Source of the DNA: Entophlyctis helioformis
Lineage: Eukaryota > Chytridiomycota > Chytridiomycetes > Chytridiales > Chytriomycetaceae
NCBI GenBank assembly: GCA_025526915.1
Contig: JAHLKH010000297.1
Location: 1-22,872 of the forward strand
DNA: 22,872 bases
Direction of reading: 5' to 3'
Each line of letters opens with the position of its first letter. Position 1 is the stretch's first letter. Position numbers and translations under genes: made by a program. This document shows positions 164 to 16,416 of this stretch, piece by piece. The notes beneath the pieces are model-generated. The model ran no database searches. It saw nothing but the letters and a program-made list of their open reading frames with translations, and was not told where the DNA came from.

Positions 164-940
164 TCGGTTGTTTACGCAAGAACGTAAACACTGACCAGCG
201 GCCGCCATTGATGCATACGGCACAGGCAACCAACCATGAAAATCATCCTCACCAGATGAGTGGGGTTGCCTCTGCAGCCAGGTGTGACACGCTCGAACGT
301 GTCTCTCTGGCTGTTGAACCTGTCGATCTGCTTTCTCCCATCTTGGAATGAATGGTGCCCATTTCAACGACATGCGCAATGCTGTGGCTTGCCAGCCGAA
401 AGGATCAGCGGGTGCAAGTCGATGTGTGTTCATTTGCAACAGATTCGGGCCCGGTTCTCATACCATTACCCCTGGTGGAATCGCTGTGATTGGTCGATCT
501 AGAGAGCCTTGCACGGTGCTGACACTGCGCGATGCGAGCACAGCAACAACGCGCCATGCCAGATCCAGACGCTGCTGCACTTGCCGCCCAACTGCACACA
601 AGCAACAACGAGCCAAACGACGACGACGGCAACGCAGGCGACAGCACGGATATGGGACAGCACTCGCTTGGTCGAGTCCTTCAGGGGAGACTGCGAGGCT
701 CACCGCTCAAGGTGGCATGCAGCAGGCAGTCCAGCAGGCCATGCAGCAGAGCAGCGTGGTCGTGGCCGTCTGAGAGGCGTGCCCAACAAGGCGGGCGGAC
801 AGAAGGCGGGCTGCAGACAGGCAAGCAGGTGCGTTGACTCGCTGTCTGTCCAGGCATGCTCCATTGCCCATCGACGACGATGGCACAGCAGTCTGACGGC
901 CGTGTCTGTGTGGGCTTGGCACTGACTGTGTGCATGTCTG
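164..940. other. no confident gene; scattered short open frames
   Basis: No continuous gene is seen. It contains a forkhead-type inverted repeat (169-190) and plus-strand frames of 60-140 codons that overlap each other, for example one from 348 and one from 532 with Gln-rich runs (MQQAVQQAMQQSS). Some of these look protein-like but none joins to the next with a good intron. It may be the eroded 5' part of the coding trace that follows. Confidence 0.4.
169..190. promoter_or_regulatory. inverted repeat of forkhead-like sites
   Basis: TGTTTACG and CGTAAACA form perfect 8-bp arms around a 6-base spacer. Each arm carries the forkhead core GTAAACA. It lies between the possible minus-strand exon and the plus-strand coding traces. 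That it is a regulatory site is inference from the motif only. Confidence 0.3.
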
Positions 941-1711
941 ATGGGTCCAAACAGCAAGGGACGTTGGCAAGACGGCCGTGAACAGGGCGAGCTGGTTGTT
1001 GTTCAAGAAGACAGTGAGAGCATTGGCATAGCAGGACCAAGCTGCCTGGTGCTTTCCGACTGCGACATGGGATGCAGCAGCAGCAGATGAGCAGCCACTG
1101 AGACGTGCTCGAAGGGCCGATCCTTGGAGTTGGCTGCAGGACCTGCTTGCTGGACAGCTGGATTGGCATGCCGACTTGGACGCCAAACTCGACAGTGGCA
1201 GCACACTCGATGAGCAGCACACTCGGCGACACTGATCCAGACGAGATTGGTGAGGAGGACGCGAGTGCTGGCAGGCGTGTCTGGCCACATTGCACTTGGT
1301 GCGATGGCATCTTGGATGCGATCCATTGAGCAGCAACTGGAGTGGCCAAACAGATCATGCACTCTCGATTCATTCAACAACCACAACGACGATGATGATG
1401 GCGATGGTCCTGACGATCCAAGTCTTGCATGCACTGTGCGTGTTGACAAGGACAATCCAGAGCAGAGGGGCGATGCAGGCAGTGCGCCAACGGCCAACCC
1501 GCCCACGGACCAGCTGGCCAGTCAGGCAATACCAACTGCATCGCACTGGGTCACAATGAAGATGCATATCAGGACGCTTGTTGGATGCAACGGGGCATTG
1601 GCTGAGAAGACGACACTCGGAGAGGGGCTCACTGCAATGCAGCTCATGACACGCAGAGTGATGCTGCACAGCGCATATCGAGCTGCGCACTGGGTGGCAT
1701 CACATCAATGA
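941..1711 (+). pseudogene. decayed or frameshifted coding trace of unknown function
   Basis: Protein-like sequence runs along the plus strand but changes frame several times. It starts at ATG 941 (MGPNSKGRWQDGREQGELVV), continues in a second frame with a Trp/Asp/Leu-rich segment (about 1070-1230), then a third (DTDPDEIGEEDASAGRR, about 1227-1330), and finishes in a 154-codon frame that stops at 1711 with a short Asp run (NNHNDDDDGDGPDDPS). No catalytic motif is recognised. The shifts occur about every 100-250 bases, like those in PPN1 downstream, so either true decay or sequencing indels could explain them. It ends 204 bases before the XPG-Fanzor gene on the same strand and could be a neighbour gene or a remnant of the same mobile unit. 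Confidence 0.35.
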
Positions 1712-1915
1712 CTGTGCCAGCAACACACGACCGCATCTTGAACGCCTGGCTGTTGGCTGTGCTCGCTGCTCCCTTGATGGTTGTCGGGCAGTGGGCGGCG
1801 AGTGCCAGACTGCTCGCTCTCTATCCACTCGCTCTCTGTTTTCATGCAATGAAAAGTTCAACTCCGCCAGACGCTCCGATTCTTTTCTCGTAAACGCAGA
1901 TACAGACACAGCAGC
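1712..1915 (+). promoter_or_regulatory. upstream region of the XPG-Fanzor gene
   Basis: This 204-base gap lies between the stop at 1711 and the ATG at 1916. It is rich in CT tracts (CTCGCTCTCTATCCACTCG near 1813) and has no clear TATA box. It is the only space for a promoter and 5' leader; the promoter role is inferred from position. Confidence 0.35.
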
Positions 1916-3388
1916 ATGACGGTCGCCGGCTTGTTGAGGGTGCTCAAGCTAGGCAGGGCTGTCTGTGTCTACAGTGCTGCCTGGACCCTGTGCCAGGTCT
2001 TGCAGGCTATGCTGCAACAGCTGCTGCCACAACAGCCGCCGCCGCAACAGCAGACTGCAACAGCCGCAACAGCAACAGCCGCAACAACAACAGCTGCAAC
2101 CACCCACTTCAGCGGGATGCTGCACGTTGACGTGCTAAGCGTCTTCTTCTCGCAGCTAGTCGCCACAGCCGCCATCAGCATGCCCGACTCCATTGACAGC
2201 TGGAAGGACATCGTCCAGCCAGCTTTTCAGCTGTTCATGGCGTCGGTCGGCGACGGCCACACCATCAAATTCCATGTGGATGGTCGCCGCGGAGACGCGG
2301 GAATCAAGATCGTGCACTACAGCCGCGCACTCAAGATGCTGCATGCGGCGGTCAAGGTTCTGCGGTATGCGTTCCGCCGCCAAGAATGCAAGCAGATGGG
2401 ATCACTTTCAAAGTAAGTTTGCTACTCTGTACTGTGTGGCTGCCATGCTGACTATCTTCTGCTGCTTGCCATCAGGGACGAGATGTATGCCCTCAACAGG
2501 TTCTACACGTTGACGCAGAGCGACAAACAGCACATTGCTGCGGCCCTCAGTGAGCTGGCTGGCAAAAAGAAGGGATGCACAGTCTGCTGGTGTGATTATG
2601 AGGCTGATGTATGCATCGCCCGCCATGTTCATGAGCCAAGGTAACATTGCCTTGGATCATTCTGCCGTGACTGATGGCTCACGGTCTGTATTCTGTGACA
2701 GTGCCAAGCCGATCATTGTCATTGCCAATGACTCTGATCTGGTGGCACATTGTGCTGGGCACTGCGGTGTTGTTGTGACCCACTTGCAGCATGGGCGGTT
2801 TAACCAGCCTCGCTCATACAACCATGGCGGTATCGCCTCAACCGCGTCTGCATTGGGTGTGCGGGATTTTCGTGGTGCATGCCTGGCTGTGGCTGTGCTT
2901 TCTCATACAGACTTTTTTGGCCGCAATGACCATGGTGAGTTGCCGCGCCTGTTTTGTAGTATCTGCCATCACTCACATGCCATTCTTTGTCTACATGCGC
3001 GATTCTGCTTGCATTCCCTGCCAGGAATCGCCGCCGCGGTCAAGTTTGTCAATGCGCGGTTTGATGCCAAGGTCGAAGAGCTCAACATCAAGGCGGCTGA
3101 CCTCTACACGATCCTCGAGACTCCTAATGAGGCCAAGGCGTTCATGGACGACGTCAGGGACGCGTACATCGAGGAGCTGGTCAAGAATGGTGATGAGAGC
3201 CTTGTCCAGGCATTCAAGAACGCATTTGAAGTCTTTGTCAACCGGAATGATGTTGGGGCCTCTGCTGGTGCAATCACAGCACCGATCGTCGCGAGGTATG
3301 TTTATTCTTGAAGGATGTCATGGACATGATGGCATTGACGCGTTTGAATGCCTTGCACAGATCTGAGCCTCAAGCCAACCACACCAAC
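1916..3388 (+). CDS. N-terminal FEN1/XPG-like 5' nuclease domain (exons 1-5a)
   Basis: FEN1/XPG enzymes cut 5' flaps and bubbles in DNA with two metal ions held by acidic residues. Here the family order is visible. The start is MTVAGLLRVL. N-domain motif GMLHVDVLSVFF has D72, and IKFHVDGRR has D122. The I-domain has DYEADVCIA (E208, D210) and IVIANDSDLVAHC (D231, D233). A helix-hairpin-helix-like segment AVLSHTDFFGRNDHG has D291, corresponding to the GxDY motif of FEN1. A Gln/Thr/Ala-rich insert (about residues 37-66) separates the start from the first Asp. Introns at 2413-2475, 2641-2701, 2935-3024 and 3296-3360 are all GT-AG. The frame runs into the retrotransposon at 3389. Family assignment is firm; cutting activity and substrate are inferred. 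The C-terminal PCNA-binding motif of FEN1 is not seen. Confidence 0.85.
3384..3388 (+). repeat. target site duplication, left copy (CCAAC)
   Basis: CCAAC directly before the LTR start TGTAAC is repeated at 10295-10299 directly after the right LTR end GTTACA. A 5-bp duplication is usual for Ty3/gypsy integrases. Deleting the element and one copy restores the exon frame. Confidence 0.93.
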
Positions 3389-3510
3389 TGTAACTGTCCT
3401 CGTCGAGAGCGGCTGGCCGTCTGGTGGCAGAGGGGCAGTGAGTATACAGGCTTACGGCTTGGATACGACTTCATTGAGACTCATGCACAGACCTGGTGGC
3501 AGAGGGGCAG

Positions 3511-3753
3511 TGTAACAGTCAGCCGCGATCACGTGACACGCGTGCAACCAGTCGCGCGTCCCACTTGAATCCTGACAGACCACAAGGCGACTTGCCCCAG
3601 TCGTCGCCTTGTGTACTGAAACCCGCCGTCTGTCAGGTATTGCCCGTGCATATGCCTTTATTACTACGAAGCTATATCAATGAATAACCTTGTGTACTGA
3701 AACCCGCCGTCTGTCAGACCGCCCATCGTCTCGTTGCACATCGTCCTGTTGCA
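3511..3753. mobile_element. nested solo-LTR-like insertion
   Basis: The insert begins TGTAACAG and ends CTGTTGCA, that is TG...CA with imperfect inverted ends. It is flanked by GGCAG at 3506-3510 and 3754-3758, a 5-bp duplication. The right LTR lacks it and shows the uninterrupted site. It has no coding capacity, so it is best read as a solo LTR of another element, or a small non-autonomous LTR unit. Inside are an 11-bp hairpin (3581-3591 with 3603-3613) and a 30-bp direct repeat (3607-3636 and 3688-3717). Orientation is not certain. Confidence 0.8.
3607..3717. repeat. 30-bp direct repeat pair inside the nested insertion
   Basis: The same 30 bases, starting CCTTGTGTACTGAAACC and ending CTGTCAG, occur at 3607-3636 and 3688-3717. 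The first copy also pairs with 3572-3591 upstream (CTGACAG and CACAAGGCGAC), giving a potential two-part stem. Between the copies is an AT-richer stretch with TATATC and AATAA-like sequence, as might be found in the U3 or R part of an LTR. Confidence 0.75.
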
Positions 3754-3846
3754 GGCAGTGAGTATACAGGCTTACGGCTTGGATACGACTACAACAACAG
3801 GGCCAAGCCAAGTCCGGGCGAGGCGCGTCCAGATCAATGCCAGCAG

Positions 3847-3858
3847 GTCACGTGACCA
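3847..3858. promoter_or_regulatory. palindrome GGTCACGTGACC in the left LTR
   Basis: A perfect 12-bp palindrome with the E-box core CACGTG lies near the outer LTR end that would be U3 on the minus strand. The same 12 bases occur in the right LTR at 10258-10269. CACGTG is a binding core for fungal bHLH factors of the Cbf1/Pho4 type; a promoter role is inferred. Confidence 0.5.
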
Positions 3859-3883
3859 CGGGACTGCGGCAGCATCCGTTACA

Positions 3884-3894
3884 CTCCCCCCAGC
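3884..3894 (-). other. polypurine tract before the 3' LTR
   Basis: On the minus strand the sequence GCTGGGGGGAG abuts the LTR start TGTAACGG. It sits where the plus-strand primer of reverse transcription is expected and fixes the element's orientation. Confidence 0.85.
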
Positions 3895-3936
3895 GTAGAC
3901 AGCCACTTATAAGAAAGAAGAGTGGATGAACAGCGA

Positions 3937-6900
3937 CTAGGAGGATGCAGGGGCATTGCACACACGAGAGGCAGAAGTGCGGGCAACGATGGACGCATAG
4001 GACACAGGACGGGGAACCGTGCGCTCAGAGCGACGAGGTGGGGCGGGATGGTTGAGAGGGGGAAGAGAAGAGAGAGAGAAGGAAGGAGGAGAAGAGGGAG
4101 GAGGGAGAGGAGGGAAAGATGGAGAGAGAGAGGGAGATGCGGGTGCAGCAGGTGCGATCGGCTCGTCAGCCGGAGCAGGTGCCGCGGGCGTGGCTGCTGC
4201 TGGAGCAGGGGCCACTGGTGCAGGAGCAGGCGCAGTGCGCTTGCGGCGAGAGGGCTTGGATGCCTTGGGCTGCGTGGGAGCAGGCGCCGTGGCTGGAGCA
4301 GGAGCAGCCGGAGCAGGAGCCGCGCGCGTGGGCTGAGCCGGTTTGGACGCCTTGCCCTTAGGCGCCTTGGTCGGCCGAGCATGGAACACCTTGACGAGGT
4401 CCTGGGCCTTGCGCATGTCGGCGGCTGGGACCCATGTGTTGTCGTCGGCTGGATAACCGACCCACTTGACCAGATACTCGATCTTGCCGCGATAAGTGCG
4501 CGAGTCGACGATCTGCTCGACCTCGTAGTTGTCCGACGTGCCGTCGTCGGCGTGGTACTCGGGGTCAGGCCGGGAGGGCACGTCCTTGCGGCCGGTGGGC
4601 GCAGACAGAGGGTCGACATACGGGCAGATCCGGTCGGCATGGAACACGTTGTGGACGCGGTGCAGCGAGGCAGGCAGCGCGAGCGTGTAGTTGAGGCCAG
4701 ATTCACCAGAGTCCAGGCTGGTGATGGCAAAGGGGCCGAGCCACTTGGCGGCCGTGAGCGGCGGGCGGTGCGAGTCCGCCGGCCAGGAGATGCCCTCAGC
4801 GTTGAGGAGCACCATGTCGCCGACCTTGTACGCAGGGTGACGGCAGCGACGCTTGTTTGCCTGAACGGCCATGGCTGCCTGGGCTTTGCGCCGATTCAAA
4901 ATGGCCGAGTCGCGAGCAGCAGCCATGTCCAGCAGCAGGTCGTGGGCCGCGGCAGATGGTGCCAGGGCTGGCTCGGACGGGAAGGACCGCGGGTGGCGGC
5001 CAAACGCCAGGAAGAAGGGTGCAAAGCCAGACGACGCAGACGGCGCGCAGTTGAGGCCAAAGCAGGTGGGACCGAGCAGCAGCGGCCAGTCAGAGCCGTG
5101 GTAATCGGCCGCCTTGGCGAGCGCATCCTTGATGGTGCGGATGCTGCGTTCGGCCAAGCCGTCAGTCTGCTGGTGGCGAGCCGTGCTGAGGTTCTGCTTG
5201 ATCCGGGCAGCAGTGCAGAGGCTCGACCAGAAGGCCGACAGCCAGCGGGCGTCGCGGTCCGAGACGATGTCGACCGGGAAGCCCTTGCCCGAGCAGACCC
5301 AGCGAGTCAGGAAGAGCTCGGCCAGCTCCTGGGCCGACGACGAGCGGCGGCACGGGAACGCGTCGCAGAGACCGGACAGGCGATCGACCACAACCAGAGC
5401 AGCATCAAACGCATCGTCTTGTCCGCCCGCGGGCAGGAACATGACGTCCATGGCGACGCTCGAGAAGCAGTCGTCCGGGATCGCGAGTGGATGCAGCAGG
5501 CCGTCGGGCCGGTGGTTGGGCGTGCGGTGGCGCTGGCACACGTCGCATGAGGCGACGTAGGCGGCAATGTCCTCGGACATTCTGGGCCAGAAGTACCGGT
5601 TCGACAAGCGGCTGGTGGTCCACTGACGTCCCTGGTGCGCGCCAAAGGGGGAATCGTGGTAGTGGGCGAGCAGATCCGCGCGCAGAGACTGCGGCACATA
5701 CAAGTGGTTGCCTTTGTACCACCACGCACCATCCAAGCACTCCATGTGCACTACGACCTTGCGGTCGGCCGGCGTGGCTGACGACGGGTCAGCCTTCCAG
5801 CCAGGCAGTCTGGAGGCGAATGGGTCGGCCGGCAACGCCGCACGCACGTCTTTCGCCCAGTCAGAGTCAGTGCGCAGATTGGCAGCACGGATCGGGACAG
5901 GCGAGCGACAGTTTGTGCAGAGAGGGGCCTTTGAGGGATCGCGGGACAGCAGATCGGCCAGCGCGTTGAGCTCGCCAGGCACGTACTCGATGGATGTATC
6001 AAACTCCTGCAGAGACAGGACCCATCGAGCCTGCCGATCCGACAGGTGGGGCTGCGTGGCCAACCAGACCAGCGCCTTGTGGTCAGTGTGCGTGACAGAG
6101 CGCACACTGGACAGCAGATGACGGAAACGCGAGAAGAACTCCACGATGGCAAGCAACTCGTGTTCGTGGGTTGGATAGTTCATCTCGGCTGGGCTAAGCT
6201 TACGTGACCAGCAGGCCACCAGCTTCTCGCCATCTGGGTGGATCTGCGACAGGTAGCCGGCAATGACGTAGTTGCTGGCATCAGTGTAGACATGCGTTTC
6301 CAGAGCCGGGTCAAAGAACCGCAGCTCGGTCGCTTTCAGCACTGCCTGTCGCAGGTCTTCCACGGCCTGCTTTTGAGCAGGGCCCCACTCCCACTTGGCA
6401 TTCTTGGCCAGTAGCTTGTATAGTGGCAAGCACATGGTGGCGTACACCTTTGCAGGGTTCGGCCCACCAATGAATGACTTTAACCACACAAGCTTACCTA
6501 GCCAAGTTGCCAGAGTGGTTGTGTTGGAGATGTGGGGGGCAGCTGCCATGTCCTGCAAGTGCTTTGGCGCAATGGAATAACCAGTGGGCGAAAGCACATG
6601 ACCGCAGAACTCGATGTCCTGCTGCAGGATCATGCACTTAGATGGCTTAATGTACAATTGAGCCTTCAGTAGCAGCTTGAGAACAGTGCGTAGGTGTTTG
6701 ATATGCTCCTCGTACGTCGCGCTGTAGATGTAGATGTCATCCATGTACACCGAGACGCACGTGCCCAGCAGCTCATTGAGCGTCGACTGGATGGCTTGTG
6801 TAAACACAGCCGGAGCATTGGTCAGCCCAAAAGGCATGACCGTGAACTCAAAGTGACCAAACTGGGTGGAGAACGCAGTTTTCCACTGGTCCTCCGCCTT

Positions 6901-9309
6901 AACACGGATGTTAAGGAAGCCCTCGCGAATGTCAAGCATCGAGCGGAAGGGTTTGTTTGCCAAGTTATCACGGAGGGTCTCAATCTCCGGGATCGCACTG
7001 TGGAACTTCACCGAGATGTTGTTCAAGCCGCGGTAGTCAATGACCAACCGCAGCGAACCATCCTTCTTGCGGACAAAGAGCATGCCGGCGCCCAAAGGCG
7101 ATGACGAGCGGCGGATGTAACCTTTGGTGTACCACTCGTCCAGCTGCTTCTTGAGCGCTACGGATGCATCCTGGTTCAGTTTCTTGAGGCCACGACGCGG
7201 CGGCAGCTGCGCATCCTTAATGAAAGGGATCGCGATCTCGAACTCCGAGTCGTGCGCGCGGCCTTGCGGCGGGCAGCAGACCTCGTAGTACTCGATGAAT
7301 GCCTTCTGCGTCTCCTCGTCCGGGCAGACTGGAAGGTAGGGGTACTTCTCCTTCAGCTCGTCCGGGGTGAGGCCGTTTGCAGCCGCGACGCGAAGGCGCG
7401 CATCGGCAGCTGCCTCACGGTCCTCAGGCAGGTCATCCACATAGACCAGCTCCGCGTACTCGTCAGGATGGGCGAGGATGTCTGACATGGTAACCACAAT
7501 GTCAGAGTGCGGCCGGTTGTGGGGTGCAGCCGACGGCGGAGCGTCTTCGTGCTGCCAGATGTGGTGCACATCGGGGCGCGACTCGGTTGAGAAGCGGAAA
7601 ACACCGCGACAGAAGTTGAATGACGCCTCCGCGGTGGTGCGCAGCCATGGCATGCCCAGGATGACATCATCCACACCGTCATAGACGAGGAACCGCACCT
7701 GGCTGACCGCAGCTGATCTGTCGGCCAGCGTGAGGTATACCTCTGAATCTAGCCTCTGCAAGTTGCCGTTGGCAAACTCAAGAGTCACCGCCTGCCGGGT
7801 GAACGGCCGGGCAGCGGCGAGCAGGCCATTGGCATCCAACCAATGGCGAGCCACTAGATTCGCGCTGCTGCCAGTGTCCACCAGGACGCTGGCGCTGCGA
7901 TTGTCCAGGAACACCGGAAAGGTGCACCGGTGGGTGGTGATGGGCCTCACCGGGGCAAGGTGCCCCTCCTTTAGCCGCGATGGCGGCAACACAGGACAAA
8001 CAGGGTGATCAGGGGCCGCGGAGGGCATCTTTTTATTCGCAACACCACCCAATGGGTCACTCTTCTTCATCTGCGTCACTGTACTGCATCCCGTCGTCTG
8101 AGAACGACGAGATGGTTTCGAGCGACTGCGAGCCGGAGCCATTGCTGGTGCGCCGTCGTCACGGGCAGGGACCGATGGAGATTCGGTGTCAGCATTGGGC
8201 TTACACGCGGCTGCAGGCTTAGCCGCCGAAGCGCGCTTAGCCACAGGAGCAGGAGGAGCCAGAGGGGGCGAGCGAACGTACCCGGTTGCCTTGGCCTTTG
8301 CCGCGATGTGCCCGACCTTAGAGTGGGGCGGGCGCTGGCTAGGCGATCGGCCAGCATGGTCGGCTGTCGCAGCGGGCGAGGCAGCCTTACGCGTCTCAGA
8401 CGCGCTGTTGTTGCCAGAGGGCGCAGGAGTGGCAGCCTTGGGCGACGAGGAACTCCAAGAACGCGGCGACGCGGCAGCTGTCTTGCCAGAGCTGGGCTTT
8501 GACTGGGCCTCGAGGGCCTTGTGGGCATCTGCCAGAGCAGTGGCGGCGGCAGTCTCCAGAGCGTGCTCGGCTGCCTCTGAGTGATCCTCAAAGAACGCGT
8601 CGCGGAGGGCGGCATACGTCTTGAACTTCCCTGGGGGCAGATCCTTGATGCGGGCACGAAGGAATCTGAGCTTCCGGTCGTCCGTGTATCCCGCGTCGCT
8701 GAACAGCGGTTCGGCCTCCAGAATCCAATCCTGCGGGGCGCGGCCATGGCACAGCGTCGGCTTGAACAGGCTCTCCAGCTTCCCTTCCGCTTGGTTGCGA
8801 ATCCGCTCTGGGTTGCGGTGGAGCGACTGGAGGTCGGCAAGGAACTGGGGGAACGTGAACAGAGTGTCGTCGGCAGAATGCGACTCGTGCCATGCGGTGA
8901 CAAACTCGAGTGCGCGGCCAGAGAAGTACGGCAGCAGTAACGAGAAGATGGCGCCTAACGGGATTGCGTCGACGCCGGCAGTGGTGCAGGCTTCCTTGTA
9001 TGCACCGCTGACCGCAATGACGAATGGCTTGTGGTTCTTGTGAGTGGTGTTCCAATCGACTGAGGGAGCCGAGCCCTTGGTCATCACGAATCCGCTGAAT
9101 GGCACCTGCTTGGCGCCCAAGCAGTCTGTGAAAACCTTGGCGAGGTTTGGTGCACGGGCGTCCGCGGCTGCTGGCAGGCGTGCGTCCACCGAGGACCCAA
9201 ACATGAGGGCCGAACGCGACGCCTGCAAGGCAGCTGTGGCTGCAACGGCCTTGTCTGCGGCCTGCTGGGCCGAGGCGACTTGCTTGCTAAGGGCGATCAT
9301 CGATTCCAC
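3937..9309 (-). CDS. gag-pol: Gag-Pol polyprotein of the Ty3/gypsy chromovirus
   Basis: This 1790-codon frame has no break. In order: a Gag capsid-like region (about 60-270, e.g. AIPLGAIFSLLLPYFSG); a low-complexity Ala/Ser/Lys region without a visible CCHC zinc knuckle; aspartic protease with VDTGSSANLV (D478); reverse transcriptase with VYMDDIYIYS (YMDD at 855-858); RNase H with VYTDASNY; integrase with an HHCC zinc finger (HYHDSPFGAHQGR ... CDVCQRH) and DDE core (AMDVMF with D1288, SDRD, TDGLAERS); a chromodomain near 1595-1645 (YEVEQIVDSR ... LVKWVGYPADDNTW); and a Pro/Ala-rich tail. The polyprotein copies the element RNA and inserts the DNA; the chromodomain normally directs integration to marked chromatin. 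The same frame continues upstream through an in-frame TGA into 9340-9981, so the first Met here (9309) may not be the natural start. Confidence 0.96.
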   Translation of the reverse strand: MESMIALSKQVASAQQAADKAVAATAALQASRSALMFGSSVDARLPAAADARAPNLAKVFTDCLGAKQVPFSGFVMTKGSAPSVDWNTTHKNHKPFVIAVSGAYKEACTTAGVDAIPLGAIFSLLLPYFSGRALEFVTAWHESHSADDTLFTFPQFLADLQSLHRNPERIRNQAEGKLESLFKPTLCHGRAPQDWILEAEPLFSDAGYTDDRKLRFLRARIKDLPPGKFKTYAALRDAFFEDHSEAAEHALETAAATALADAHKALEAQSKPSSGKTAAASPRSWSSSSPKAATPAPSGNNSASETRKAASPAATADHAGRSPSQRPPHSKVGHIAAKAKATGYVRSPPLAPPAPVAKRASAAKPAAACKPNADTESPSVPARDDGAPAMAPARSRSKPSRRSQTTGCSTVTQMKKSDPLGGVANKKMPSAAPDHPVCPVLPPSRLKEGHLAPVRPITTHRCTFPVFLDNRSASVLVDTGSSANLVARHWLDANGLLAAARPFTRQAVTLEFANGNLQRLDSEVYLTLADRSAAVSQVRFLVYDGVDDVILGMPWLRTTAEASFNFCRGVFRFSTESRPDVHHIWQHEDAPPSAAPHNRPHSDIVVTMSDILAHPDEYAELVYVDDLPEDREAAADARLRVAAANGLTPDELKEKYPYLPVCPDEETQKAFIEYYEVCCPPQGRAHDSEFEIAIPFIKDAQLPPRRGLKKLNQDASVALKKQLDEWYTKGYIRRSSSPLGAGMLFVRKKDGSLRLVIDYRGLNNISVKFHSAIPEIETLRDNLANKPFRSMLDIREGFLNIRVKAEDQWKTAFSTQFGHFEFTVMPFGLTNAPAVFTQAIQSTLNELLGTCVSVYMDDIYIYSATYEEHIKHLRTVLKLLLKAQLYIKPSKCMILQQDIEFCGHVLSPTGYSIAPKHLQDMAAAPHISNTTTLATWLGKLVWLKSFIGGPNPAKVYATMCLPLYKLLAKNAKWEWGPAQKQAVEDLRQAVLKATELRFFDPALETHVYTDASNYVIAGYLSQIHPDGEKLVACWSRKLSPAEMNYPTHEHELLAIVEFFSRFRHLLSSVRSVTHTDHKALVWLATQPHLSDRQARWVLSLQEFDTSIEYVPGELNALADLLSRDPSKAPLCTNCRSPVPIRAANLRTDSDWAKDVRAALPADPFASRLPGWKADPSSATPADRKVVVHMECLDGAWWYKGNHLYVPQSLRADLLAHYHDSPFGAHQGRQWTTSRLSNRYFWPRMSEDIAAYVASCDVCQRHRTPNHRPDGLLHPLAIPDDCFSSVAMDVMFLPAGGQDDAFDAALVVVDRLSGLCDAFPCRRSSSAQELAELFLTRWVCSGKGFPVDIVSDRDARWLSAFWSSLCTAARIKQNLSTARHQQTDGLAERSIRTIKDALAKAADYHGSDWPLLLGPTCFGLNCAPSASSGFAPFFLAFGRHPRSFPSEPALAPSAAAHDLLLDMAAARDSAILNRRKAQAAMAVQANKRRCRHPAYKVGDMVLLNAEGISWPADSHRPPLTAAKWLGPFAITSLDSGESGLNYTLALPASLHRVHNVFHADRICPYVDPLSAPTGRKDVPSRPDPEYHADDGTSDNYEVEQIVDSRTYRGKIEYLVKWVGYPADDNTWVPAADMRKAQDLVKVFHARPTKAPKGKASKPAQPTRAAPAPAAPAPATAPAPTQPKASKPSRRKRTAPAPAPVAPAPAAATPAAPAPADEPIAPAAPASPSLSPSFPPLPPPSSPPSFSLSSLPPLNHPAPPRRSERTVPRPVSYASIVARTSASRVCNAPASS

Positions 9310-9336
9310 GGTCTTGGTGGCCTGCGTCTGCAGGTT

Positions 9337-9981
9337 TCACACGGCTGCCGTGTTGGCTGACACTGAGTCGAACAGAGCGGCCAGACGCTCCTCATTGGAC
9401 GCGGCAGACGTGGTGAAAGAGTCCGCCTGCTGGACCAGCAGCTTGTGGGTGTCGTGCAGACGGGTCTGCAGGTCCTCGATGGAGACCTGAACCGCAGACA
9501 GCGATGCGGCGTGGTCATCCAGTGTGATCCGGACGTCCTCGCTGGCCGAATCCTGCAGCTGGTGCACAGAAGCGGACGCGGCGCCAACAGAGTGGACGGG
9601 AAAAGCGAGCGAGCCGCCCGCGCCGCCCAACAGAGCACCTCCGCCGCCCCGAGGCGCGGCAGAGGAGTGGCGAAACGCGGGCGTGCTGGAGGCCACTGCA
9701 GAGGTTGCATTGCCCGATGGAGCACCCTGGCGGCCACGAGAGCCAGCCTGAGGGAGGCGGGATGCAGACATGCCGCTGGCCATGGAGCCAAGCCCAGAAT
9801 CACGCGTGTGGCTATCAGCCCAGATGGTAGAGTTACCCGTAAACCCATGCAGGAGGTGTGACGGCTCGTCGGCAAACGAGGAGTCTGGCGAGGCGAATGA
9901 GGCGCTGTTGGCGTCCGGGTCGGCGTCGGCCGCAGCGCTGGCAGGGCCGGCGCCAGGGGTGGGCGTGTGAGACAGGCCCAT
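9337..9981 (-). CDS. gag: N-terminal Gag segment ending at an in-frame TGA
   Basis: The frame starts at ATG 9981-9979 (MGLSHTPTPGAG), about 70 bases inside the 5' LTR, and runs 214 codons to TGA at 9339-9337. The first half is low-complexity Ala/Ser/Asp/Gly. The second half is heptad-like (DIRI..DDHAASLSAVQVSIEDL pattern around 9450-9530) and likely coiled coil. The next codons (NLQTQATKTVESM) continue in the same frame into the 1790-codon polyprotein, so the TGA splits one Gag. It may be a nonsense mutation, a read-through stop, or an unneeded leader. No zinc-binding motif is present. Confidence 0.75.
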   Translation of the reverse strand: MGLSHTPTPGAGPASAAADADPDANSASFASPDSSFADEPSHLLHGFTGNSTIWADSHTRDSGLGSMASGMSASRLPQAGSRGRQGAPSGNATSAVASSTPAFRHSSAAPRGGGGALLGGAGGSLAFPVHSVGAASASVHQLQDSASEDVRITLDDHAASLSAVQVSIEDLQTRLHDTHKLLVQQADSFTTSAASNEERLAALFDSVSANTAAV

Positions 9982-10049
9982 AGGCGCACAAAAAGAAATC
10001 GACGCCGCAGGTAACGGCGGCTGGCGGCGTCGGTGGCGTTGGTTGTTGT

Positions 10050-10294
10050 TGTAACTGTCCTCGTCGAGAGCGGCTGGCCGTCTGGTGGCAGAGGGGCAGT
10101 GAGTATACAGGCTTACGGCTGGATACAACTTCATTGAGACTCAGGCACAGACCTGGTGGCAGAGGGGCAGTGAGTATACAGGCTTACGGCTGGATACAAC
10201 TACAACAACAGGGCCAAGCCAAGTCCGGGCGAGGCGCGTCCAGATCAATGCCAGCAGGTCACGTGACCACGGGACTGCGGCGGCATCCGTTACA
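10050..10294 (-). repeat. 5' LTR (right), 245 bases
   Basis: It begins TGTAAC and ends GTTACA on the plus strand and matches the left LTR outside the nested insert. It contains two tandem copies of a roughly 49-base unit (CTGGTGGCAGAGGGGCAG ... GGATACAACT) separated by about 22 bases. The palindrome GGTCACGTGACC is at 10258-10269. Confidence 0.95.
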
Positions 10295-10299
10295 CCAAC
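10295..10299 (+). repeat. target site duplication, right copy (CCAAC)
   Basis: It matches 3384-3388. Exon 5 of the interrupted gene resumes at 10300. Confidence 0.93.
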
Positions 10300-13200
10300 C
10301 ACATGGATGTCAACACGACTCCATCTGTTGGAATGAAGTATGAATGCATGGAATCTGTGGCGTTTCTGGCAAAACTGACACTGAGTTTCTGTTTCTGATG
10401 CTGCGATCTCATTATTGTGCAGGTGCTTGACGGATGGATGCTGCTTGAGCCATACTGCACAGCAGCAGCAGCAGCAGGCTGAGAACGGTGTCCAGCTTGT
10501 CCACCTGACACGTGGCAGGGTCGAGCAGCTTGTCAGCAGCACTGTTGGCAGCAGGCGGTTGGATGCTGCGTTTGATGAGGTGAAGGGTTGCCATGTGGCA
10601 CTCGACACCATCATCAAGTGCACAGTCAATCGCCTTGCGAGCAGCTACGATGCTGTCACGCGTCGTGACATCCTGGCAGCCATCTGCAAGGCAGCGAGTG
10701 CCCAGCTGCTGCAGATTGCCAGCGAGCAGTTTCTTGGAGCAGATGGCATTTTTAAGCTCCTCCCAGCAGATGAGCCAATCTATCGCGCATTGGTATGTTT
10801 GCATGGCTTGAATGCATGCTGTTGCTCTTGCACCATGCGCATTTACTGATTTTGAATGCGGCTGACTTGATCCATTGCTTCTGGACAGAACGCAGCAATG
10901 AGAATGCAGACGCAGCTTGACAAGATTGCCAATCCGCCATACGCATCCCACCGGCATACATCCACTCCCAGTAGGTGTTGATTGCATTGAAATGATTCAA
11001 CAGCATCCACTCACAGATCCATTTGTGTTGAATGCATAGTACTGGACACAGAGACGCAGAAAGTCGAGTACCACGGCAGGATGACCACGCGAGTTGCACC
11101 GCGATCCATTGTCGCTGCCATCCACGACAAGGCGTCAGCCTGGCTGTATTTCCTGGAGCACCCCATAGGTCCACATCCAGAAAACGCCAAACCGCCGACA
11201 CTCATCAATCAGCGCCAAAAGGCTGTCGCCCTGCTGCAGTCCATCATTGAGCAAACTGCAGTGCGTCTCGACTTCCACTGACTGCATGTGCATGGAATGA
11301 TTTGGCGCGATTGCTCACCATCCCACTCCACAGGTTGGTCCTCCTCCACCGCCACCCAAGCCACCACGGTTGTCCAACAACATTTTCGCAGCACTGGCAT
11401 GCTCCAAGACCTTTCCCGTTGGCGATCTTGCCAACACTGAGACGACGGTGAGTTTGGTGCACCATTGGCGATTATGGCTGTGTTTGGTGCACTTGGAATG
11501 GCCGCCTGATGCTGCATCCAACCGTCACAGGCGCCATTCCAATTCACGGCAGCCAAGCGGGCTGCGCACACAAAGGAGCGTGCCAAGAAAAAAGAGAAGG
11601 CCACACTACAGGAGATCATCAGAGAGAACAAGAAGAAGTCAGGCCTGCGTGCTCGCAAGGCTGGAACTGTTGGCAAGAAGAAGGCGTACGCGACATATGG
11701 CATGTCATGTGCCTTGAATGTGCTTGCTGACACATGTGTCATGCCACAGATGGGTTGCTGGCAGTCGAGTGGCAACTCGTCAGAAGCTTGCAAAGCTCGG
11801 CCGCATGATTGCGATGCCAGTCATGACACTTGCCGCGGCCACCCATCCCAAAGGACAGCCAAGACCTAAAGGCAATGCACACAGCCGCCCTGAGCAGATT
11901 GTCAAAATGGCGGTATGGGGTTTGATCGGCATGCTGCTCTGTTTGCTTGGCTTTGTGGATGCTGACTTGTGTGGTATGCAGGAGATGCAGTCATGCGATC
12001 TCGCAAACACCAAGTTTTTTGGGCCCCAAACCAAGACACCACTCGCCGAGCAGACACCTAGTTCAATCAGCCACGACACCACCCTCACAGTCTACTATTT
12101 CACGGCCGGCTTGTGGCGTGCTGCCCTTGCCTTGATCGGCGCCATGGTCGCGGATCTGGTCAAGCTGGATGCAGACGCGCCTCTGCCTCTGGAGTACTGT
12201 GTCCTGGAGGCAAGCCAAGGCAAGCTGACGCAGTATTACTATGTCAACCCGAGGACTTTGATGAGGACGAGAGCGCGACGCTCTTGTCAGGTGGATGCAT
12301 TCACAAGCAGGGCATCATTGTTTGGCACATGTACGGCACCGGCCCGCACAGCAGCGACACAAAGATCCCTCGCTATGGCAGCTTGGTGACTCTCGAGAGT
12401 GACACGGCTCTCAAGATCTGCGCCTTTGATACTGCCAAGATTGCCAAGCAACCCAACATGCATGGCGACCTCGACGAGCACGACGAGCACGACGAGCACG
12501 ACGAGCAGGACGAGCAGGACGAGCACGACGAGCACGACGAGCTGCCTGTGCAGCCTGACGACCCATGCATCCAGGACGAGCACGATGAGCACGACGAGCA
12601 CGATGAGCCCGAGCTGCCTGTGCAGCCTTGCATCCAGGACAAGCATGATGTGCACAATCAGCCGACAGCAGCCAGCAGCACCGGCGCTTCATCTTCAGCC
12701 GTCCAACCGCCACCACCACCACCACCACCACCAGCAGCAGCAGTTCCATCAGCAAATGAGCTGCTTACGGCCCTCACCAGCAGTATATCAGGTGGAGGCG
12801 GTGCTGTGGACATGCTGCTGCGCCATCTTGGCTATGTCCTGGCAGACAGCATGATGGTGCAGCCGCAAGCGACCAAGCATGCCATCCACTCCTGGATCGT
12901 AACAGTCATGCAAATGATGATCCATCGCACCTGGACGCGGAGGGTGCTGCAAACCAACGCAGCCAAGCTGCAGGATGACACGGTACGGATGGACATGATG
13001 CAGACGTGCACGATGCTGATGGACATGTCACTGATTGATGCAATGCAGCAGGCGGCCACAGAGCACAGCGACACGTTCCAGAAAGACGCGCGGCAAGCAG
13101 CCATGATGGACATGGCACAGATGGACACGATGCGAGCAGCCATGATGGATGCCGACATGATGGACGCGACGCAGCAGACGGTGACAATCCAGGCCGACGC

Positions 13201-13740
13201 GATCCTGTCAGCCGTGGTGCAGGCAGATGCAGAGCTGTCGGCCTTGATGCACACAAGTGCGCAGACGGCAGACGCTGTGCACGCGGGCACTATGGAGGCT
13301 GTCTTGCCCTACAGGCTTGATGGCAGCCTTTGCGCGGATGCAAGGAACGACATTTACAGCAATCTGGCCAGGGATGTGTGTGGCATGCTCGCGCGGCACT
13401 ACATCTCTAGCCAGTCTGAGCTGGCCGTCACTGCGGCCCTCAAGCTGATGCCCAGTGCATCCATTGAGGACGTGAGAGTGTGGATTGCGGCACTTTTCAA
13501 GACCGCCAAGGCTGCCAAGGCCGCCAAGGCTGCTGCTGCCAAGGCTGCCAAGGACGCTACACCACCAGCGATCGAGGACGCCACACCGCTGGCCACTTTG
13601 GACACTGCTCCTCCCACCTCAAGTCTCAAGCGGGGCCGGTCCACCTCTTCGTCAGCCAACAAGGGCGGCAGGCCCAAGAAGCGACGGGGCAGGAAGGCAG
13701 CCACCACCAAGGACGCGGCATCCAGCTCTTCCTCGGCCAC
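10300..13740 (+). CDS. middle part and linker of the XPG-Fanzor protein (exons 5b-12)
   Basis: Reading resumes after the retrotransposon in the same frame as exon 5a. Exons 6-11 encode a helical region without a recognised catalytic motif, a Pro run (VGPPPPPPKPPRL, near 11334) and a Lys-rich helix (KERAKKKEKATLQEI, near 11575). Exon 12 carries two runs of Asp-Glu-His triplets (12472-12540 and 12576-12610), a poly-Pro run near 12711, a Met/Asp/Gln-rich repetitive segment (about 12975-13250), an Ala/Lys helix (about 13500-13550) and an AT-hook with basic tail (GGRPKKRRGRK, 13664-13697), which suggests nuclear DNA binding. A one-base shift sits at the CCC run 12248-12250; adding one base joins YYYVN to PEDFDEDES. 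Alternatives are a very short intron there or a separate gene starting near 12113, but the N-terminal residues of that frame look non-coding. No homologue of the middle region is recognised. Confidence 0.65.
12472..12612 (+). repeat. Asp-Glu-His coding microsatellite
   Basis: The 9-base unit GACGAGCAC is repeated in tandem, with a few Gln codons, in two blocks separated by a Pro/Gln/Asp spacer. It codes for runs of DEH. Slippage here would change length by whole triplets and keep frame. Confidence 0.85.
13664..13697 (+). other. AT-hook and nuclear-localisation-like motif
   Basis: GGRPKKRRGRK has the AT-hook core Gly-Arg-Pro flanked by basic residues, and the same run serves as a classical nuclear-import signal. 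It lies just before the Fanzor part. Function is inferred from the motif. Confidence 0.6.
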
Positions 13741-16181
13741 TGACGACGGCGGTATTGATACAATCCCGCAAGAGCTGCACAAGCTCAAGACACTGGTGCC
13801 TGATGTGTCTCGGTCAGAGATCGTGATCTTTTACGAGCTGTCCAAGCTTGCTGGCATGACAAACAAGCTGTGCCCGCAAGCAGCCAGCCGCGATCCCTTC
13901 ATCCTCATCACCGAGACAACGCTCTTTTGGGCAGTGATGGGGAGTAGTGATGATCGCATCCGTGGCGAGCAAAGTGCTGCTTTGGCATACTTGCGACTGC
14001 AGCTCCTTGCTGTACTCAGTAGGTCGCACTGCCTGTTTATGCCATGTTTGTATGATATGATGCTGACACTGCACTTTTATCCAAGACTACCAAAAAGCCA
14101 GCTTGGGCCTCGCATCATCCAACAGGACGATCAAGAAGGCGTTCAGCAATGGCAAGGAGCTCTGTATCCTCAACATACTCCTTCCCGGCCTCCGCCCCAA
14201 GAAAGGCCGCTATCAGACGCCAGACGAGGCCGACAAGGAGGTGTTTGAGCAGGTCCAAGCAAATGACGCAGTCATTGCTGATGCGATGCAACTGGCTGAG
14301 CACGAGGGTCTGGTTGGCAAGGAGTGCCAGGAGTTTATAGACGCCGTGATCGATGGTCTTCCTCCTGCAATTCCAAGCAAACCGACCGCGGTGGGCAGCT
14401 TCCGGACGGACGGATACAGCATCTTTCAATTGGCGCTGGACTATTGCACAGACCGTCCAGAGTCGCCTCGCAGTATGTGGCGTGCTTGAATGCTTTGGTG
14501 CACACATTGGTTCTGACTGCCGCCTTGATCTGCATGCTCCAACATGGCATCTTTAGGCGAGCAGCCGTGGCTTGCTGATGGCATGCCTGATGATGATGAT
14601 GATGATGATGATGGCTTGGATGATGGCTTGGATGATGGCTTGGATGATGGCCTTGATGGCACATGTGAGTTGCTGTGCCAATCCAGACGCGCACTTGTTG
14701 TCCACACCGACTGACATGCCATCCACAGCTGCCGATCCTGCCGACCCATCAGCCACCAAGCCAAAAGCACCTAATCCTGTAAGTCACTTGCACGCTAAAC
14801 TCGCGCATTGGTGCACATGCATTGCACATTCCTCACTCATGTCATGGCATGACAGGGCAAGCTCAGCTTCTACGCCTCGCAGCGACTGCGCAACATTGTC
14901 AAAGCCAACAAGTTGTTCACCAACAAGGGCTACCGGTTTGTGCGGATTGTTGGCATTGATTGGGGCGAGCGGTACCTGTATGGCGCGTCCAGCATGCTGG
15001 TGGATCTGGCAACCTTCACCTATACCCTCGAGTCCAACTACGTGCTCGCCTCTGGCATGGCACGAGCCGAGCACAGCCTTCAGCGGTGGTATGCATGCAA
15101 TGACTCTGCCACGCGCACTCTTGACCAGATCAACTCACAGTGCCTGCCTCTTGTGCCAGGCTCAACAATCGATATGCCAAGGCTGCTGACATCCAGGCGG
15201 CCATTGCATTCAAGACAGCAAAGCATGCCGATCCAAACGCCACAGCAGGCGAGAGAGCCTTTTGGGATCTGCGCTGCCGTGCGTACTGCTCGCCATTCCT
15301 GAACGCACGGGTACGTTTTCTCTGGTTCTGAATGCCCATTGACATGCCCGCCATGCTGCTTGATTGCCTGCTGATCACACTGGATGGCATGGCATGACAT
15401 GGCATTCCACAGAAGGTCAAGGCCAAGCGGTTCACCAAGCGCAGCAACAGCATGTCTATTCGCGGAAACGCTCTTGAGGGCATCATGAAGCTGGCAGGAT
15501 CGACCACTGGAGAGCGCGCATCTGCTGCGTCTCAAGGCCGCTGTGACAAGCCAACAGAGAAGGACATCCCCGTTGTGTGGGCATTTGGCATTGACTTTAC
15601 AGGCCAAGGTGGCAGGCACACTGTGTTTGAGAAGTTTCTCATCAGGCATCTGCGGTCGTCTGGATATGCCTATGTGCGTCTGATGCCATCCATCCATCCA
15701 TCCGTCTGTGTACCAACTGACCACACGATCATGCACACACACACACAGATCTACCGCTGCAACGAGAACCTGACCAGCCAGATGTGCCCGCAGTGCAAGC
15801 AGCGGATCCCATACAAGAACCGCACCAACCTGCGACGCTACGAGTGCACAGACTGCGAGACTGTCTACCACCGAGACGTTCTTGGAGCCACCAACATTGG
15901 AATGGTCGCACTGTGGCATCTGCTCTATGGACAACGGCCGCTCTACTTGACGCACACGCCCGCCGGTCAGCAATCCAGCCACGCCAGAGTACCTTGCAGA
16001 CATCAAGGCAATGCATCTATTCATCCAGGATCGTGCACAACATCACATCATGCTGCTCGCGACACCGCCTGATCAGCCTGTCGTCCAGCAGCCTCCGTCA
16101 CCCGATCTGCTTCCCTTCAAGTCGCATGTGGCCTCATGGGATCAGATCATGCTGCCATGTCTGCCAACAACAACACTTTGA
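13741..16181 (+). CDS. Fanzor-type RNA-guided nuclease domain (exons 12 end-19)
   Basis: Fanzors are eukaryotic relatives of TnpB that cut DNA under guidance of an omega-like RNA made from the 3' part of their locus. The split RuvC and zinc ribbon are visible. RuvC-I is VRIVGIDWGERY (D1675 in the corrected numbering). The RuvC-II region is VVWAFGIDFTGQG, without the usual Glu, followed by a candidate alternative Glu in RCNENLTSQMCPQC (E1861). The zinc ribbon is CPQC ... CTDC. RuvC-III is YHRDVLGATNIG (D1898). Upstream are helical segments and an Asp-rich LDDG repeat (14590-14660) that would form the lobe before RuvC. Introns: 14019-14085, 14473-14556, 14665-14728, 14779-14855, 15089-15159, 15311-15412, 15674-15748. 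Near 15960 the frame shifts by one: uncorrected it stops at 16072; in the next frame it continues protein-like (TPEYLADIKAMHLFIQD) to TGA 16179-16181. Family call firm, activity unknown. Confidence 0.9.
14588..14660 (+). repeat. GAT and GATGATGGCTTG coding repeat
   Basis: A run of about eight GAT codons is followed by four copies of a 12-base unit coding Gly-Leu-Asp-Asp. All lie in exon 14 of the fusion gene, so the repeat makes an acidic patch just before RuvC-I. Confidence 0.85.
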
Positions 16182-16416
16182 ATCGGGGAACCTCCCGATC
16201 GACCTAACGGGTCACTTCAATAGAAGGTGAGACCCTTGTTGGATGTGCCACGCCCGCCTGTCGTCGCATGCTCGTTGCTGACTCGAACCTTCAATCACAT
16301 GATATGTGGGCTTGCATCCGTCGCCTCTTGGGTCGAATTTAACTCCAAAATCCTTGGTAATTGTATGAATATCGGGCCCAGAATCGGATCAATCGTCACC
16401 CATAAATTCCGGCTAA
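16073..16416 (+). other. 3' end and intergenic region between Fanzor and PPN1
   Basis: The first 109 bases hold the frame-corrected C-terminal tail of the Fanzor. Right after its stop is a small hairpin (ATCGGG 16182-16187 with CCCGAT 16194-16199). The rest, 16200-16416, is more AT-rich than its surroundings and has no open frame. It must contain the Fanzor 3' end and the PPN1 promoter. By analogy with other Fanzor/TnpB loci, a guide RNA would be expected to overlap this stretch; no such RNA is proven here. Confidence 0.45.

What the first reader, a model, noticed from the sequence alone, without database searches (positions are those of the whole stretch)
1916..16181. XPG/FEN1 flap nuclease fused to a Fanzor RNA-guided nuclease
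Nineteen inferred exons with matching splice phases join a 5' nuclease (D72, D122, E208, D210, D231, D233, D291) to a C-terminal Fanzor with RuvC and zinc ribbon, giving a protein near 2,000 residues. I know of no described fusion of these two nuclease families. A flap nuclease next to an R-loop-forming RNA-guided nuclease could trim the displaced strand or the cut end, helping transposon copying or homing; that role is speculation.
Basis: partly seen in the sequence, partly recalled or inferred. Interest (0 to 1): 0.93.

Follow-up and report, generated by a model that had tools for sequence, protein, structure and literature searches.

The report
Flap-like nuclease fused to Fanzor
In the chytrid fungus Entophlyctis helioformis, a DNA transposon present in dozens of copies carries exons that appear to form one gene joining a likely flap-trimming DNA nuclease to a likely RNA-guided DNA cutter of the TnpB/Fanzor kind, which together would help the element copy itself; the copy in this window is broken.

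Summary
The fusion holds for a transposon family, not as an intact gene in this window. The window is a contig of Entophlyctis helioformis (chytrid). The feature is one copy of a 7-9 kb transposon with 23-bp terminal inverted repeats and 8-bp target duplications; its left end occurs at 76 places, its right end at 164. Nineteen exons lead from an XPG/FEN1-like N-part, through roughly 1,200 residues of unknown fold, to a TnpB/Fanzor-type RuvC with zinc ribbon. The N-part/middle junction can be read in frame in five subfamilies, and a depositors' gene model makes the same junction. All seven flap-nuclease acids are invariant in six sequences (36-68% identical). The window copy is broken by a Ty3/gypsy insertion in a small exon and two frameshifts; none of six copies mapped exon by exon is intact. 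The flap-nuclease assignment is remote: Pfam matches stay below cut-off and AlphaFold was uninformative, but a profile-profile score was reached by 0 of 200 shuffles. The RuvC motif is DWG, not the Fanzor-typical DPG. No held paper names Fanzor and XPG together. Likely mechanism (inferred): RNA-guided cutting of the empty site, the fused nuclease trimming 5' ends so that repair copies the element back.

The parts
440..447 (.). left copy of the 8-bp target duplication (CAGATTCG; right copy CAGAATCG at 16379-16386, one mismatch)
448..470 (+). left terminal inverted repeat of the element (76 places in the genome, up to 2 mismatches; reversed-pattern control 0)
471..1915 (.). 5' region, 28-bp subterminal repeats; no conserved reading frame (83 of 112 deletions relative to the window are not multiples of 3)
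1916..2412 (+). exon 1 (N-part: first two catalytic-type acids)
2476..2640 (+). exon 2 (EAD acids)
2702..2934 (+). exon 3 (NDSD and TD acids)
3025..3295 (+). exon 4 (GIAAA stretch, end of N-part)
3361..3388 (+). left piece of the small fifth exon, interrupted by the gypsy insertion (other piece 10300-10337)
3389..10294 (-). Ty3/gypsy LTR element with chromodomain, inserted in the small exon; duplication CCAAC at 3384-3388 and 10295-10299; not part of the fusion
10300..10337 (+). right piece of the small fifth exon
10423..11912 (+). exons 6-11 (10423-10792, 10889-10970, 11052-11260, 11334-11447, 11531-11685, 11750-11912): middle part, no known fold
11982..14018 (+). exon 12, long middle exon; frameshifted in this copy, open in L066
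14086..14778 (+). exons 13-15 (14086-14472, 14557-14664, 14729-14778)
   Evidence: P0014, P0008
14856..15088 (+). exon 16, first RuvC motif GIDWG
15160..15673 (+). exons 17-18 (15160-15310, 15413-15673)
   Evidence: P0008
15749..16072 (+). exon 19: alternative glutamate, C4 zinc ribbon, RD of the third RuvC motif; ends at 16072 in this copy, while other copies read on to the stop that lies at 16179-16181
16183..16240 (+). conserved hairpins directly after the stop used by other copies; candidate guide-RNA scaffold (inferred; approximate right limit)
16353..16378 (+). right end of the element with the right terminal inverted repeat (164 places, up to 3 mismatches; reversed-pattern control 0)

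Best explanation
This is a damaged copy of a 7-9 kb DNA transposon whose exons appear to encode one long protein, joining a likely XPG/FEN1-type 5' nuclease to a likely RNA-guided TnpB/Fanzor-type nuclease that would help the element copy itself. Shown: ends, target duplications, copy number, shared exon phases, conserved acids, zinc ribbon, and the damage in this copy. Inferred: an RNA read from the 3' hairpins through the right end guides the RuvC module to the empty target site (the homologous chromosome, or the donor site after excision) and it cuts there; the fused flap-type nuclease then removes 5' flaps or resects 5' ends, so that the break is repaired by copying from a chromosome that carries the element. 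Movement to new sites, with its 8-bp duplications, would need a transposase that I could not identify.
For: Repeated architecture: 30 of 77 listed N-part matches have a listed Fanzor match downstream on the same strand; the 7.2-kb subfamily that the first query missed carries the N-part too. Transposon: 76 left and 164 right ends, controls 0; 9 of 15 copies have flanking 8-mers alike at 7 or 8 positions, 0 of 210 cross-pairings. One frame: 10 of 30 mapped copies have exons 1-5 in register and no stop in the spliced frame; donor consensus kept in 23 of 23 aligned copies although its bases change; L084 of a fifth subfamily can be spliced in the same phase; P0001 makes the same junction; L066 is open for 1,410 residues. 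Selection: dN/dS 0.43-0.46 overall between subfamilies A and B. N-part: seven acids invariant in six sequences; profile-profile score 28.85 against FEN1/EXO1/XPG I-domains, 0 of 200 column shuffles reach it (maximum 20.37). C-part: PF07282 above cut-off, motif and alternative-glutamate spacing fit. 3' hairpins: 98.3% of cells paired.
Against: No copy read is intact throughout. No transcript was seen. In 2 of 7 copies the gene finder prefers a break at the N-part/middle junction at the lower cost. N-part matches to Pfam are below cut-off (best E 0.013), the genome-wide XPG_I search hits none of these copies, PDB profile searches found no flap nuclease, hhalign's own probability is 15% and AlphaFold gave pLDDT 43. 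The first RuvC motif is DWG. No transposase was found in the element. Covariation of the hairpins is slight (22 of 500 shuffles reach the percentage paired). dN/dS is near or above 1 in two short middle exons.
Confidence: 0.6

Rival explanations
1. Two proteins from one transposon: the N-part ends just after exon 4 (intron retention or a real stop) and a second protein starts at the ATG in the small exon or further on.
For: Read on past exon 4, the frame meets a stop within a few codons; an ATG lies in the small exon in subfamilies A, B and D; 12 of 23 copies have a GC donor there; the gene finder prefers a break there in 2 of 7 copies at cost 10.
Against: Splice sites and phase are kept in five subfamilies; P0001 makes the junction; exon 6 has no ATG before its conserved residues in the window; the ATG is absent in subfamily C (L083); only about 65 nt separate exon 4 and the small exon, too short for separate transcripts (inference).
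Confidence: 0.17
2. The N-part is not a flap nuclease but another PIN-like or unrelated domain with similar acids; the protein would be a Fanzor with an unusual N-terminal extension.
For: Pfam matches below cut-off, to three different PIN-like families (XPG_I_2 E 0.013, 5_3_exonuc_N 0.027, NYN_YacP 0.066); no match in solved structures; uninformative model.
Against: All seven acids invariant across five subfamilies; profile-profile alignment in catalytic register, 0 of 200 shuffles, against E 0.66 for an unrelated profile.
Confidence: 0.15
3. The two nuclease modules, or the unclassified middle, are themselves the mobility machinery, so that the protein replaces a transposase.
For: No other conserved frame was found in the 5' region and no transposase profile matched the parts scanned; no MULE in the genome (hAT search uninformative).
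Against: 8-bp duplications with inverted repeats are typical of DDE transposases (general knowledge); KDZ-type transposase pieces exist elsewhere in the genome, 3 of 4 with stops, and short copies of 1.0-2.2 kb suggest action in trans.
Confidence: 0.1
4. Chance neighbourhood or nested decay of unrelated elements.
For: The window copy does carry a nested gypsy element and frameshifts.
Against: The same order, strand and spacing recur in many copies inside shared ends with target duplications.
Confidence: 0.02

Closest known systems
Fanzor proteins of eukaryotic DNA transposons (Bao and Jurka 2013, PMC3627910; Saito 2023, PMC10432273; Yoon 2023, PMC10711439)
   Same: RuvC with C4 zinc ribbon, alternative glutamate, carried by a transposon with inverted repeats; conserved structured stretch after the stop
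   Different: joined to an N-terminal XPG/FEN1-like module and a long unclassified middle; DWG instead of DPG; the known SPu-1 protein has 633 residues (passage) against roughly 2,000 here
Eukaryotic XPG/FEN1/EXO1 5' nucleases
   Same: order of seven acids, EAD and NDSD stretches, TD followed by a GI-A stretch
   Different: sequence matches below Pfam cut-offs; part of a larger transposon protein; host FEN1, EXO1 and XPG exist separately
PGv-1 Mariner element with separate transposase, GIY-YIG nuclease and Fanzor (Bao and Jurka 2013, passages)
   Same: a second nuclease travels with a Fanzor in one transposon
   Different: separate proteins and another nuclease fold; here one spliced frame and no recognised transposase

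Membership tests
TnpB/Fanzor superfamily | D-x(125,275)-[TS][TS]xx-C4-x(5,50)-RD motif (abstract of PMC3627910) | tested here: met
   D35, T224-S225, C228/C231/C248/C251, R257-D258 in A3; one row of A3 is partly hand-assembled, not in these residues
TnpB/Fanzor superfamily | profile match to the TNB domain above cut-off | tested here: met
   PF07282 43.5 and 40.4 bits against 26.3; NCBIfam guided_TnpB E 4.8e-7 but 29.4 bits against a cut-off of 100
Canonical Fanzor | glutamate six residues before the zinc finger (alternative E) | tested here: met
   E221-x6-C228 in A3; definition from passages of PMC10711439
Canonical Fanzor | DPG in the first RuvC motif (near exclusive in Fanzors) | tested here: not met
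   DWG in the three rows of A3; therefore filed as TnpB/Fanzor-type, not as canonical Fanzor
Canonical Fanzor | RNA-guided DNA cleavage | not testable with these tools
   only structured 3' hairpins seen
XPG/FEN1 5' nucleases | seven active-site acids in order | tested here: met
   invariant in six sequences of five subfamilies
XPG/FEN1 5' nucleases | profile match above curated cut-off | tested here: not met
   XPG_I_2 at best E 0.013, 15.5 bits against 24.2; PF00867 hits only host repair genes; hence XPG/FEN1-like, not filed as a member
XPG/FEN1 5' nucleases | profile-profile similarity over the I-domain | tested here: met
   score 28.85, E 0.0018, 0 of 200 shuffles; program's probability only 15%
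XPG/FEN1 5' nucleases | fold | tested here: inconclusive
   AlphaFold pLDDT 43
DNA transposon with terminal inverted repeats | inverted repeats and target-site duplication of fixed length | tested here: met
   19 of 23 positions alike (sequences); 8-bp duplication in 9 of 15 copies
DNA transposon with terminal inverted repeats | encodes its own transposase | tested here: inconclusive
   no transposase profile in the parts scanned; the middle has no known fold

The most novel reading that the evidence does not exclude
A transposon-borne homing enzyme with two nucleases in one polypeptide: a TnpB/Fanzor module, guided by an RNA from the element's own right end, cuts the empty allele next to a CAAA-like motif, and the fused FEN1/EXO1-like module resects the 5' ends, so that repair copies the element across: a natural gene drive with built-in end processing. 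The unclassified middle may even carry the mobility function.
Probability: 0.25. Interest if true: 0.93.

Novelty: new variant of a known kind. Interest (0 to 1): 0.8.

Why it matters
If true, nature has fused an RNA-guided DNA cutter to an end-processing nuclease, a pairing that bears on how TnpB/Fanzor proteins keep their transposons in genomes and on editors that steer repair towards copying. It would make RNA-guided homing in a eukaryote testable, with many sibling copies of different age in one genome. The combination of DWG with the alternative glutamate also adds a branch to the question of how Fanzors arose.

Tried and rejected
Chance pairing of unrelated elements: contradicted by the repeated architecture. 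A second gene in the 5' region: 83 of 112 deletions relative to the window are not multiples of three. Viral relatives: two scans of viral contigs gave none by tblastn. Rfam: nothing at gathering scores in the window. Transposases elsewhere in the genome: no MULE; no hAT, but that search rang in no control genome; KDZ, 4 pieces. A search of the protein database with the 1,410-residue model found nothing at E <= 0.001 among the 7,991 candidates scored, so no deposited long fusion protein was seen. AlphaFold models of an N-part and a C-part protein both had pLDDT 43. Fold search of the N-part model was uninformative (no flap nuclease listed). For the C-part, 6 of the first 13 Foldseek rows are CRISPR effectors (Cas005, four Cas12-1, one CasPhi), best E 8.3e-3, none at E <= 0.001. 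The first gene-model run over-spliced and was retuned; one two-gene run crashed after two copies and was completed for the other five. The gene finder cannot show intactness, since it avoids stops by construction. Papers: none of the held papers has both Fanzor and XPG; 'TnpB', 'flap endonuclease' and 'fusion' occur together in one (PMC12719977, listing only); XPG, FEN1 and flap have no occurrence in three Fanzor papers (passages and counts seen). Of 82 papers with 'Fanzor', 40 were listed. The library holds open-licence papers only; a further 2023 survey of Fanzors is known to me by recall and was not seen.
Full report
What the window is. The window is a whole contig (C297) of a 29.6-Mb genome in 482 contigs. 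Profile searches of 5.8 billion proteins with the N-part (7 hits at E <= 10) and the C-part (10 hits at E <= 1) returned only Entophlyctis helioformis proteins (only candidates sharing short words are scored). Contig lengths given there equal contigs of this genome (34,258 = C239, 180,915 = C36, 30,177 = C254, 35,250 = C235, 85,360 = C117). So this is a chytrid fungus. Other eukaryotic genomes were not available to search.

The element. Copies share a left end, GGCCCGGTTCTCATACCATTACC at 448-470, and a right end, CTTGGTAATTGTATGAATATCGGGCC at 16353-16378; the terminal repeats agree at 19 of 23 positions. The left end occurs at 76 places (up to 2 mismatches), the right end at 164 (up to 3), reversed-pattern controls 0 and 0. 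Of 76 left ends, 41 have a listed right end within 25 kb on the same strand (100 of the 164 right ends were printed): 14 pairs measure 7.2-8.0 kb, 14 measure 8.8-9.8 kb, 3 are short (1.0-2.2 kb) and 10 are longer than 11 kb. Of 15 copies with both flanks read, 9 have flanking 8-mers alike at 7 or 8 positions (7 of them exactly 8, and none at 7 or 9 bp); 0 of 210 cross-pairings reach 7. The other 6 may be mispaired or recombined ends.

The gene. A gene finder scored on substitutions between seven full copies (60.7-97.2% identical) finds many of the same exons in three subfamilies: 233 nt in A, B and C; 82 nt in all three; 209 nt in A and B with 266 in C; 155 in A and B with 158 in C. L066 gives 1,410 spliced residues without a stop.

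The junction. Across exon 4, the small exon and exon 6, 23 copies were aligned. The donor after exon 4 is GTATGT or GTAGGT in 11 and GCAAGT or GCAAGC in 12; the acceptor of exon 6 is CAG in all 23. The small exon is 66 nt in A, B and D apart from single-base indels in decayed copies, and can be read as 39 nt in C. Ten of 30 mapped copies have exons 1-5 in register and no stop in the spliced frame. In L084 (subfamily E) a direct splice in the same phase is possible. The depositors' model P0001 (BC831DRAFT_507395) runs through exons 2-6 with this junction and ends inside exon 6; in exon 1 it starts further upstream and leaves out a short piece. P0014 joins exons 12-16, P0008 runs from exon 13 into 18, P0011 joins 18 and 19. 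Whether those models rest on transcripts I cannot tell, and no deposited model spans N-part and C-part. When the gene finder may break the gene, at cost 20 no break falls before exon 14 in 7 of 7 copies; at cost 10 L067 and L069 break just after exon 4, L069 also just after exon 10, and L065-L069 break late, in exons 14-18. Retaining intron 4 would give an N-part alone (inference).

Selection. Between subfamilies A and B, dN/dS is 0.43-0.46 in three comparisons of 842-929 codons; exons broken in either copy were left out. It is 0.14-0.49 in exons 1-4, 0.21-0.38 in exons 6 and 7, 0.51-0.70 in two RuvC exons, and 0.85-1.21 in exons 9 and 11. The small exon has 0.74-0.81 on 21 codons, too few to weigh. 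So both modules and most of the link seem to be under purifying selection.

The N-part. Seven acids are invariant in six sequences of five subfamilies, 36-68% identical to the first. Pfam matches are below cut-off (XPG_I_2 E 0.013, 5_3_exonuc_N 0.027, NYN_YacP 0.066). Against I-domains of the host's FEN1, EXO1 and XPG and of three PDB chains, hhalign scores 28.85 (E 0.0018), with EAD, NDSD and TD...GIAAA on the catalytic stretches; 0 of 200 column-shuffled versions reach it, the highest being 20.37; the program's own probability is 15%. An unrelated profile gives E 0.66. PDB profile searches found no flap nuclease and the AlphaFold model was uninformative. I call it XPG/FEN1-like.

The C-part. 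The TNB profile is matched above cut-off. The residues fit D-x(125,275)-[TS][TS]xx-C4-x(5,50)-RD (abstract of PMC3627910) and the alternative-glutamate spacing of Fanzors (passages of PMC10711439). The first RuvC motif is DWG, whereas Fanzors are near exclusively DPG, so I file it as TnpB/Fanzor-type. The low-confidence model of a C-part protein has CRISPR effectors in 6 of its first 13 Foldseek rows, none at E <= 0.001.

The 3' end. Directly after the stop used by other copies lie hairpins. In 14 distinct sequences 98.3% of cells pair; sliding the partners drops this to 30-62%; two pairs show a double change; 22 of 500 shuffles reach the percentage paired. This fits a guide-RNA scaffold, which in Fanzor and TnpB elements lies at the 3' end (recalled), but the covariation is slight.

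This copy. A chromodomain Ty3/gypsy element with an open frame of 1,799 codons sits at 3389-10294 inside the small exon, with duplication CCAAC. Contig C67 has the same host flanks (99% over 2 kb), the same insertion of the family, and no gypsy at this place. Exon 12 and the last exon are frameshifted here. Other copies break elsewhere. I found no copy intact throughout, but read only seven in full.

How it likely works. Shown: architecture, ends, duplications, conservation. Inferred from TnpB/Fanzor biology: an RNA from the right end guides cutting of the empty site. Inferred from XPG/FEN1/EXO1 biology: the fused module trims 5' flaps or resects 5' ends and so favours copying from an element-bearing chromosome. 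The duplicated 8-mer leans to CAAA on its left: of 31 distinct flanks 23 have A at position 2 against 11 at the mirrored position (Fisher p 0.0046); positions 1, 3 and 4 lean the same way with p 0.31, 0.07 and 0.13. Such asymmetry would fit a motif read by the guided nuclease, but is only a hint. Who makes the duplications is open.

Known or new. No held paper has both Fanzor and XPG, and three Fanzor papers do not use XPG, FEN1 or flap. The nearest known arrangement seen is a transposon with a separate GIY-YIG nuclease beside a Fanzor (passages of PMC3627910). I rate it a new variant of a known kind.

Noticed in passing
window 3389-10294: Ty3/gypsy element with chromodomain and an open 1,799-codon frame on the minus strand, 5-bp duplication CCAAC; absent from the other haplotype contig C67.
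   Followed up: partly
L066, L068, L070 exons 1-4: Mosaic copies: exons 1 and 3 differ strongly between copies (dS 0.56-0.73) while exon 4 and most of exons 6-11 are nearly identical, as if modules were exchanged between subfamilies.
   Followed up: no
window 471-1868: The non-coding 5' region (91-95% identical in the loci compared) is better conserved between subfamilies A and B than the N-part coding exons (about 81%); 28-bp repeats lie just inside the left end.
   Followed up: partly
L007, L008, L024, L027, L028, L029 right ends: Beyond GGGCC these copies share a further stretch (ATTTGCCGGC...), so either the element ends further out or another repeat adjoins it.
   Followed up: no
intron 4, window 3296 and homologous sites: 12 of 23 aligned copies use a GC donor (GCAAGT or GCAAGC) where the others have GT; could favour intron retention and an N-part-only product.
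   Followed up: no
left flanks of 35 copies (31 distinct): Target duplications lean to CAAA on the left half, less so in mirror image.
   Followed up: partly
G000 C334:6404-7253, C271:9823-10062, C396:222-449: KDZ-type transposase pieces, 3 of 4 with stops; none of these contigs is in the list of 76 left ends.
   Followed up: no
window 19832-21205: Host gene beside the insertion: symplekin/PTA1 N-terminal domain (PF11935, E 1.2e-19).
   Followed up: no
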